Positions 40,295-42,372 of a stretch of 64,000 nucleotides of DNA are shown here, piece after piece. This stretch comes from Hahella sp. CCB-MM4. GTDB taxonomy: Bacteria; Pseudomonadota; Gammaproteobacteria; Pseudomonadales; Oleiphilaceae. The position numbers and the translations under genes were made by a program. The stretch lies in contig NZ_MRYI01000021.1 of the NCBI RefSeq assembly GCF_002260525.1, positions 62,001-126,000 of the forward strand, given 5' to 3'. The notes beneath the pieces were generated by a model. It had not been told where the DNA came from. It saw only the letters and a program-made list of their open reading frames with translations, and did not search any database. Each line of letters opens with the position of its first letter. Position 1 is the stretch's first letter.

Positions 40295-41173
40295 TTATTC
40301 AGTTGAAGCTGGCTGCCCGGCACCCTCTGCCGGCAGATTCTTTTCGCCTGCAGCCGGCTTACGGAACACCATGAGAATATGGCGGCTCCGATTCAGTTCC
40401 GCCAAGGGGCGCGCTTCCACCCGGGCAAAGGGCTCACCCGGATCGTGCACAATTGAGCTGACAACGGCTACAGGGTAGCCTGGAGGAAACTTTCCCCCCA
40501 AGCCTGAACTGACAAGGAGATCCCCTTCAATAATGTCGGCAGTATCCGGGACATTTGCCAGCTCCAGACGATCCAAGGCTCCGATTCCCACCAGAATACC
40601 CCGAACTCCGTTTCTATTAACCTGGATAGGAACAGCGTGATTGCTGTCTGAAATCAACAGTACCCGTGATGACAATGGAGTAACCTGGGTGACCTGCCCA
40701 AACAAACCCTGAGAGTCCAACACCGGCTGGCCGACATAGATACCATCATCGCTGCCTTTGTTGACAACAACCTGATGGGTATAGGGATCCGGACTGACAC
40801 CGATGATTTCAGCCACCAGCACAGAGTCGTCCACAACGGACGACGCATTCAGCAACTCTCGCAAACGGTTTACTTCCGCAGAAAGGGACGCCAGACGCTG
40901 TGATTTTGCTTCCAGGATGAGCATCCGATTACGTAATGCTTCATTTTCCTGCTGCAGATCCGTCCGCGATTTCATTGTGTCTTCCGTCCACTCCAGCAAA
41001 TCATCCGGAGCGCTGACAATCCACTGTACCGGAGCCACAACTGTCGACAACGCCTGTCTTAGTGGAGCGGTAAGATTGAAATGATAATCAGCCAGAATCA
41101 GGCCGACCGATACAACGGCCACTAATATCATTCGCGCGCCAAGGAAAGGTCCTTCAACGAAGATATTCTTAAT
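40295..41173 (-). CDS. mreC: Rod shape-determining protein MreC, ATT start
   Basis: 292 residues if translation starts at the ATT at 41171-41173. The first codons read IKNIFVEGPFLGARMILVA, which lines up column by column with the N-terminus of E. coli MreC (MKPIFSRGPSLQIRLILAV) so that ATT takes the place of the family's ATG. A perfect AGGAG (minus strand, 41181-41185) precedes it by 7 nt. The only ATG, at 41131, has no ribosome binding site and would remove the cytoplasmic start of the transmembrane helix. After the helix come a coiled coil (about 70-110: LQQENEALRNRM) and two beta domains (NDPYTHQVVVNKGS-like region, GLFGQVTQVTP). MreC organises the elongation synthases in the periplasm. 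Reading upstream of ATT meets TAG after eight codons. Confidence 0.9.
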   Translation of the reverse strand: MKNIFVEGPFLGARMILVAVVSVGLILADYHFNLTAPLRQALSTVVAPVQWIVSAPDDLLEWTEDTMKSRTDLQQENEALRNRMLILEAKSQRLASLSAEVNRLRELLNASSVVDDSVLVAEIIGVSPDPYTHQVVVNKGSDDGIYVGQPVLDSQGLFGQVTQVTPLSSRVLLISDSNHAVPIQVNRNGVRGILVGIGALDRLELANVPDTADIIEGDLLVSSGLGGKFPPGYPVAVVSSIVHDPGEPFARVEARPLAELNRSRHILMVFRKPAAGEKNLPAEGAGQPASTE

Positions 41174-41185
41174 GCCTGTTCTCCT
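41171..41185 (-). promoter_or_regulatory. Ribosome binding site and ATT start codon of mreC
   Basis: AGGAG at 41181-41185 (minus), 7-nt spacer, ATT at 41171-41173. Nothing else in the frame between the TAG upstream and the ATG 14 codons later is an ATG, GTG or TTG. AUU starts are known for infC in E. coli. Confidence 0.75.
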
Positions 41186-41226
41186 GTTATCTGTCTATTG
41201 GTCGAGGAACCATAAAGATTATATGG

Positions 41227-41328: not shown

Positions 41329-42372
<1,044 letters not shown>

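What the first reader, a model, noticed from the sequence alone, without database searches (positions are those of the whole stretch)
40295..41185. mreC appears to start at an ATT codon
The conserved N-terminus of MreC (charged start followed by GP-x-L and the membrane helix) is encoded upstream of the first ATG, reading IKNIFVEGPFLGARMILVA. It aligns residue by residue with E. coli MreC so that ATT (41171-41173, minus) is exactly at the family's Met1. AGGAG lies 7 nt before it. No ATG, GTG or TTG occurs between the TAG upstream and the inner ATG at 41131, which itself has no ribosome binding site. AUU starts are rare and in E. coli infC serve autoregulation through IF3 discrimination, so MreC could be made at low level or under IF3 control. 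A sequencing error of ATG to ATT is the main alternative.
Basis: partly seen in the sequence, partly recalled or inferred. Interest (0 to 1): 0.7.

Follow-up and report, generated by a model that had tools for sequence, protein, structure and literature searches.

The report
Rod-shape gene mreC starts at AUU
The cell-shape gene mreC of this Hahella bacterium starts at AUU instead of AUG, and about two thirds of the related bacterial families that could be read use AUU, AUC or AUA there together with a strong ribosome-binding site, while E. coli, the usual model, is one of the exceptions.

Summary
In this Hahella genome mreC can only start at ATT 41173-41171 (minus): in-frame stop 8 codons upstream, no in-frame ATG/GTG/TTG between, AGGAG 7 nt away. 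It is not a sequencing error: 7 of 7 Hahella genomes, 26 of 26 other genomes read in the family, and 172 of 267 read across the class have ATT, ATC or ATA (AUH) there; 65 have ATG/GTG/TTG, 30 could not be called. By family: 107 AUH only, 63 canonical only, 2 both, 29 unclear, of 201. Coding constraint begins at this codon. A strong Shine-Dalgarno core stands before 135 of 172 AUH starts but 14 of 65 canonical ones; the contrast holds in 37 independent pairs on the best tree, though only 6 lie on well-supported branches, too few to test. So lineages keep a weak codon with a strong ribosome site, or the reverse, as in E. coli. Best reading: MreC synthesis is limited at initiation by a codon of the kind IF3 rejects, as in infC. 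IF3 control is inferred, not shown. My literature searches found no report of it.

The parts
40295..41173 (-). mreC, 292 codons plus stop, from the ATT start
   Evidence: TIGR00219, PF04085
41171..41173 (-). ATT start codon of mreC
   Evidence: alignment with 266 other mreC starts; coding constraint begins here
41181..41185 (-). AGGAG Shine-Dalgarno core, 7 nt before ATT
   Evidence: duplex energy -7.4 kcal/mol over the 17 nt upstream
41195..41197 (-). in-frame TAG that closes the frame upstream; no canonical start between it and ATT
41129..41131 (-). first in-frame ATG, 42 nt inside the gene; not the likely start
41329..42366 (-). mreB, first gene of the operon
   Evidence: PF06723, 491.5 bits
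39814..40284 (-). mreD, from ATG 40284-40282, 10 nt after the mreC stop codon
   Evidence: PF04093, 66.5 bits
41227..41252 (-). terminator-like hairpin between mreB and mreC (8-bp stem, loop of 6, run of T)
   Evidence: found by the scan

Best explanation
mreC is translated from AUU. This is the Hahella form of a start codon kept as AUU, AUC or AUA (AUH) in 109 of the 172 sampled gammaproteobacterial families that could be called. [Shown by sequence comparison.] The ordinary initiator tRNA reads it as fMet with a poor third-position pair, so initiation is slow and is opposed by IF3, as at infC. [Inferred from established knowledge.] A strong Shine-Dalgarno sequence partly makes up for it. [Association shown.] Codon and ribosome site together set how much MreC is made per mreB-mreC-mreD message; lineages that use ATG, such as the E. 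coli group, have a much weaker ribosome site. [Association shown; the common set point is inferred.] A likely reason for a limit is that too much MreC relative to MreD disturbs cell shape. [Reported for E. coli in PMC7793260; applied here by inference.]
For: AUH at the aligned start in 172 of 267 genomes, 148 of them with no canonical in-frame codon back to the stop. Among the 210 loci whose alignment reaches residue 1 the codon there is AUH in 168, ATG/GTG/TTG in 28, other in 14. Base-position entropy: constraint at codon positions 1 and 2 starts at codon 1 and is absent at codons -8 to -5. Strong Shine-Dalgarno core in -20 to -4 in 135 of 172 AUH loci, against 16 of 172 in -40 to -24 and 3 of 172 just downstream. 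AUH -7.8 against ATG -3.1 kcal/mol; 37 independent pairs, Wilcoxon median p 7e-6. MreC overexpression deforms E. coli and MreD co-expression at least partly suppresses this (PMC7793260, passages). In vitro, AUU read by a CAU anticodon is disfavoured as IF3 rises (PMC10158994, passages).
Against: No expression, ribosome-profiling or peptide data were available here. Only 6 of the 37 pairs lie on well-supported branches, and there the contrast is not significant (3.1 same way, 0.3 opposite, 2.6 no difference; median p 0.25). 65 of 267 genomes use a canonical start, so AUH is not required for MreC function. The weak ribosome site of the canonical group may be overstated where its start is misplaced. 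24 AUH loci also have a canonical in-frame codon upstream. The strong ribosome site could make MreC output ordinary and not low.
Confidence: 0.6

Rival explanations
1. Lock-in without function: AUH with a strong ribosome site and ATG with a weak one give the same output, and most lineages inherited the first by descent. The codon regulates nothing; changing it alone is selected against only because the ribosome site is tuned to it.
For: The codon and Shine-Dalgarno strength trade off against each other. The state changes at least 37 times on the tree, so both states work. Weak start codons going with stronger Shine-Dalgarno sequences is reported genome-wide for GUG and UUG (PMC5622118, passages).
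Against: AUH persists although one third-base change gives ATG, and T, C and A interchange at least 52 times among the AUH rows. Switches to AUU are otherwise very rare: 1 of 61,358 ancestral AUG starts (PMC5622118).
Confidence: 0.25
2. Active coupling to IF3: cells use the free IF3 or initiation state to raise or lower MreC, so that wall elongation follows translation state.
For: AUH codons are the kind IF3 rejects, and infC and sigR are characterised cases (PMC5472188, passages). The own infC also starts at ATT.
Against: Nothing here shows that IF3 varies enough, or that mreC responds. The E. coli group lives without it.
Confidence: 0.2
3. Translation really starts at the inner ATG 41131 and the upstream stretch is not translated.
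For: It is the first canonical codon of the frame.
Against: The 14 codons before it are conserved as protein across the class (K at codon 2 in 147 of 172, F at codon 5 in 168, R at codon 14 in 148), a strong ribosome site faces ATT, and codon 15 is not Met in most relatives.
Confidence: 0.02
4. Sequencing error of ATG to ATT.
For: None found.
Against: Six other Hahella genomes have ATT at the same place, and AUH recurs across the class.
Confidence: 0.01

Closest known systems
infC (initiation factor IF3), AUU/AUC start with IF3 autoregulation
   Same: AUH start codon kept in distant relatives, with a ribosome site; ATT in E. coli and in this genome; a codon kind that IF3 rejects (PMC5472188, passages).
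   Different: infC encodes IF3, so the codon closes a feedback loop. MreC is a wall-growth protein with no such loop, and E. coli itself uses ATG for mreC.
pcnB of E. coli (poly(A) polymerase), AUU start
   Same: AUU start in a non-ribosomal gene; the E. coli K-12 CDS begins ATT. That the codon limits its expression is recalled, not read.
   Different: Not kept in this genome, where the likely pcnB start is ATG. The mreC codon is kept over many families.
sigR of Streptomyces, GTC start repressed by IF3
   Same: A non-canonical start keeps one protein low relative to a partner (PMC5472188, passages).
   Different: Different codon, gene and phylum; shown by experiment there, inferred here.
Start-codon and Shine-Dalgarno compensation (PMC5622118)
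   Same: Weak start codons go with stronger Shine-Dalgarno signals (passages).
   Different: That analysis covers AUG, GUG and UUG genome-wide and leaves AUU out; here it is one gene with AUH over a whole class.

Membership tests
MreC | Match to the curated MreC models | tested here: met
   TIGR00219 220.7 bits against 92.75; PF04085 152.6 bits against 28
MreC | Position between mreB and mreD | tested here: met
   PF06723 and PF04093 in the neighbours; mreB-like sequence upstream in 260 of 267 loci
Genes with a conserved near-cognate (AUH) start, infC kind | AUH at the start with no canonical in-frame start before it | tested here: met
   Window. Class: 148 strict and 24 with an upstream alternative, of 267
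Genes with a conserved near-cognate (AUH) start, infC kind | Ribosome site at the right distance from the AUH codon | tested here: met
   Core in 135 of 172, core ends peaking about 5-8 nt upstream
Genes with a conserved near-cognate (AUH) start, infC kind | Conserved over distant relatives | tested here: met
   107 families AUH only and 2 mixed, of 172 families with a call, of 201 sampled
Genes with a conserved near-cognate (AUH) start, infC kind | Initiator Met at the AUH codon in the protein | not testable with these tools
   needs N-terminal peptides or initiation profiling
Genes with a conserved near-cognate (AUH) start, infC kind | Translation rises when IF3 fidelity is impaired and falls when IF3 is in excess | not testable with these tools
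   needs reporters in IF3 mutants

The most novel reading that the evidence does not exclude
Across much of the Gammaproteobacteria the wall-elongation machinery is set by an IF3-discriminated start codon on mreC, so that cell elongation is tied to the state of translation initiation; the E. coli group uses AUG with a weak ribosome site instead, which is why the link was not seen in the model organism.
Probability: 0.25. Interest if true: 0.88.

Novelty: new member of a known kind. Interest (0 to 1): 0.74.

Why it matters
Few bacterial genes are known to keep an AUU/AUC/AUA start over long evolutionary distance; infC is the classic. Adding mreC, a core cell-shape gene, would (1) place a limit on MreC synthesis at initiation, which bears on how cells hold the MreC to MreD balance; (2) make a link between IF3 and wall growth testable with one point mutation; (3) mean that gene callers restricted to ATG/GTG/TTG cut MreC short, by 14 residues here and by 14 to 19 in the middle half of the strict AUH loci (first canonical codon at 42-57 nt), into the membrane helix; (4) show that E. 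coli is not a good guide to expression of this operon.

Tried and rejected
Sequencing error: rejected. Inner ATG start: rejected. An upstream canonical start: absent in the window and in 148 of 172 AUH loci; 24 AUH loci have one between the stop and AUH and were kept apart. A terminator between mreB and mreC as the general way to lower MreC: 10 of 170 AUH and 2 of 63 canonical loci, 0 of 260 shuffled gaps; present in this genome and its nearest relative L003, not general. pcnB as a parallel case: the own pcnB start looks like ATG. infC in 30 order relatives was only looked at by eye, because its N-terminus aligns poorly; only the own ATT is claimed. Start codons outside the class: the two such loci fetched (L358, L359) could not be aligned at residue 1 and are not used. 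An mreD ribosome-site energy printed was computed at the wrong codon and is not used.

Rows dropped before the counts: L001 (duplicate); L032-L040 (one search used peptide patterns that include IKNIFVEG, so they lean towards Ile; L040 is a distant weak match); repeat loci of genomes already held (most of L197-L223; L302); infC, pcnB and stray stretches (L194, L195, L225-L256, L300, L304). Fetched after the counts and not in them: L337-L359, of which L337-L342, the E. coli-like group, are all ATG and would raise the canonical count. Seven loci with both an AUH and an ATG near residue 1 were set to canonical by hand (L185, L188, L196, L278, L280, L318, L328). Loci whose alignment began after query residue 5 were called unclear. 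Four of the 30 unclear loci show an AUH codon just upstream of the conserved block (L152, L191, L259, L291), so AUH is rather undercounted. I read roughly one genome per family, not every genome: 267 loci, from overlapping samples of 58 relatives (56 with a match), 293 genomes of the order (289) and 274 of the class (245), plus E. coli MG1655. Four genomes whose match was a fragment were not read (G357, G360, G389, G436).

Full report
What is in the window. The minus strand holds mreB (42366-41329), mreC (41173-40295) and mreD (40284-39814), identified by Pfam and NCBIfam models. The mreC frame opens after TAG 41197-41195 and reads ACA GAT AAC AGG AGA ACA GGC ATT AAG AAT ATC TTC GTT GAA GGA CCT. 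No ATG, GTG or TTG lies in frame between the stop and ATT, and the first one after it is the ATG at 41131. AGGAG ends 7 nt before ATT. The ribosome-site energy is -7.4 kcal/mol, against -3.3 for mreB; for 44 window ORFs of 200 codons or more the mean is -3.7 at the first start and -4.7 at the best start within 40 codons. E. coli MreC aligns from residue 1, its Met facing the ATT.

Close relatives. The nearest named genome is Hahella ganghwensis DSM 17046, 93% identical in MreC, and the genome is placed with six others of one genus. All 7 have ATT; codons 2 to 16 change mostly at silent positions among them. The 26 other genomes read in the family have ATT or ATC. A sequencing error is excluded.

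The class. I read the mreC start in 267 genomes: roughly one per family, more near Hahella; 200 coded families and E. coli MG1655, counted as its own (start calls made in 45 and 46). 172 are AUH (ATT 79, ATC 68, ATA 25), 148 of these with no in-frame canonical codon back to the upstream stop; 65 are canonical (ATG 47, GTG 14, TTG 4); 30 are unclear. By level: own genus 7 of 7 AUH; rest of the family 26 of 26; rest of the order 54 of 67 (12 canonical, 1 unclear); rest of the class 85 of 167 (53 canonical, 29 unclear). By family: 107 AUH only, 63 canonical only, 2 both, 29 unclear, of 201. Without any choice of codon, the 210 loci whose alignment reaches residue 1 have there ATT 76, ATC 67, ATA 25, ATG 24, GTG 3, TTG 1 and 14 others. 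One AUH genome, L119, has an MreC that matches PDB 6zlv closely (331 bits over its 176 residues); I recall 6zlv as the Pseudomonas aeruginosa protein, so Pseudomonas-like genomes are probably among the AUH group. E. coli and six E. coli-like genomes outside the counts (L337-L342) have ATG.

Is it a start codon? Three lines of evidence. First, base-position entropy over the 172 AUH loci: codons -8 to -5 are near random at all three positions, codons -4 and -3 show the ribosome site, and from codon 1 on positions 1 and 2 are constrained while position 3 drifts, with K at codon 2 in 147 and F at codon 5 in 168. Codon 1 is AUH because the set was chosen so, and a loose motif filter (a large hydrophobic residue followed by F or Y near codons 4 and 5) was also used in calling; the remaining positions, and the contrast with the upstream codons, were not chosen. 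Second, Shine-Dalgarno cores (AGGA, GGAG, GAGG) occur in -20 to -4 in 135 of 172, against 16 in -40 to -24, 10 in -60 to -44, 3 in +4 to +20 and 12 further down; the set was not chosen by this. Third, 26 of 148 strict loci have the upstream stop within 12 nt, leaving hardly any room for another start.

Trade-off with the ribosome site. The mean duplex energy with the 16S tail is -7.8 kcal/mol for AUH (n=172), -3.1 for ATG (47), -4.4 for GTG (14) and -2.7 for TTG (4); strong cores stand before 135 of 172 AUH starts, 9 of 47 ATG and 5 of 18 GTG/TTG. Mann-Whitney for AUH against ATG gives p = 4e-15, which ignores relatedness. On a FastTree tree of 237 MreC proteins without their first 12 residues the state changes at least 37 times. 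Over 37 independent pairs on that tree the AUH member is stronger by 3.6 kcal/mol on average (Wilcoxon median p 7e-6, largest 1e-4 over 200 pairings); a strong core is in the AUH member only in about 20 pairs and in the canonical member only in about 1.7 (sign test median p 7e-5, largest 0.007). On well-supported branches only 6 pairs remain, 3.1 the same way, 0.3 opposite, 2.6 without difference, not significant. The phylogenetic result therefore leans on weakly supported branches.

How it most likely works. Shown: AUH is the start by every sequence test, it is conserved, and it goes with a strong ribosome site. Inferred: the initiator tRNA reads it with a third-position mismatch, IF3 opposes it, and codon and ribosome site together set a limited rate. 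In vitro, AUU read by a CAU anticodon is disfavoured as IF3 rises (PMC10158994, passages). infC and sigR are genes where IF3 represses such starts (PMC5472188, passages). A reason to limit MreC: its overexpression alone deforms E. coli, co-expressed MreD suppresses this at least in part, and the authors argue that balanced expression matters (PMC7793260, passages). Whether variation in IF3 is used as a signal is open.

What is known. One search (mreC with 'AUU start codon') found no paper. Searches listed 20 of 56 and 20 of 32 papers, none of those listed with mreC in it. One search (mreC, start codon, ATT) found one paper, on heterologous expression. sought AUU genes and the arXiv list; sought MreC dosage; one search found 3 papers, one search found 2, one search found 18 with 15 listed. 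By title and abstract none of the listed papers reports a non-canonical mreC start; most were not opened. The library is open-access only. PMC5622118 counted 1 switch to AUU among 61,358 ancestral AUG starts (passages). PMC5559785 reports an ATT start of infC in Xanthomonas by peptides and does not mention mreC (passages). PMC8137920, on P. aeruginosa MreC, does not mention a start codon (term search of the main text). So the claim of newness is limited to these searches, and databases may already carry AUH starts of mreC unremarked.

Verdict. The mechanism is plausible and cheap to test; the IF3 link is unproven.

Noticed in passing
window 41252-41227 (minus strand): Terminator-like hairpin with a T run between mreB and mreC, also in the nearest relative (L003) but in only 10 of 170 AUH and 2 of 63 canonical loci; it may lower mreCD transcription in this species pair.
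   Followed up: partly
L300 (G000 contig 85) and L255 (G000 contig 84): The own infC starts at ATT with no canonical in-frame codon back to the stop, as expected; the own pcnB looks like ATG, unlike the ATT of E. coli pcnB.
   Followed up: partly
window 40323-40282 (minus strand): A mechanical ORF call starts mreD at GTG 40323, inside mreC; the likely start is ATG 40284-40282, 10 nt after the mreC stop codon.
   Followed up: no
mreB-mreC gap in the loci: The gap between the mreB stop and the mreC start is longer in AUH loci (median 84 nt, n=170) than in canonical ones (median 39 nt, n=63); coupling to mreB translation may differ between the two states.
   Followed up: no
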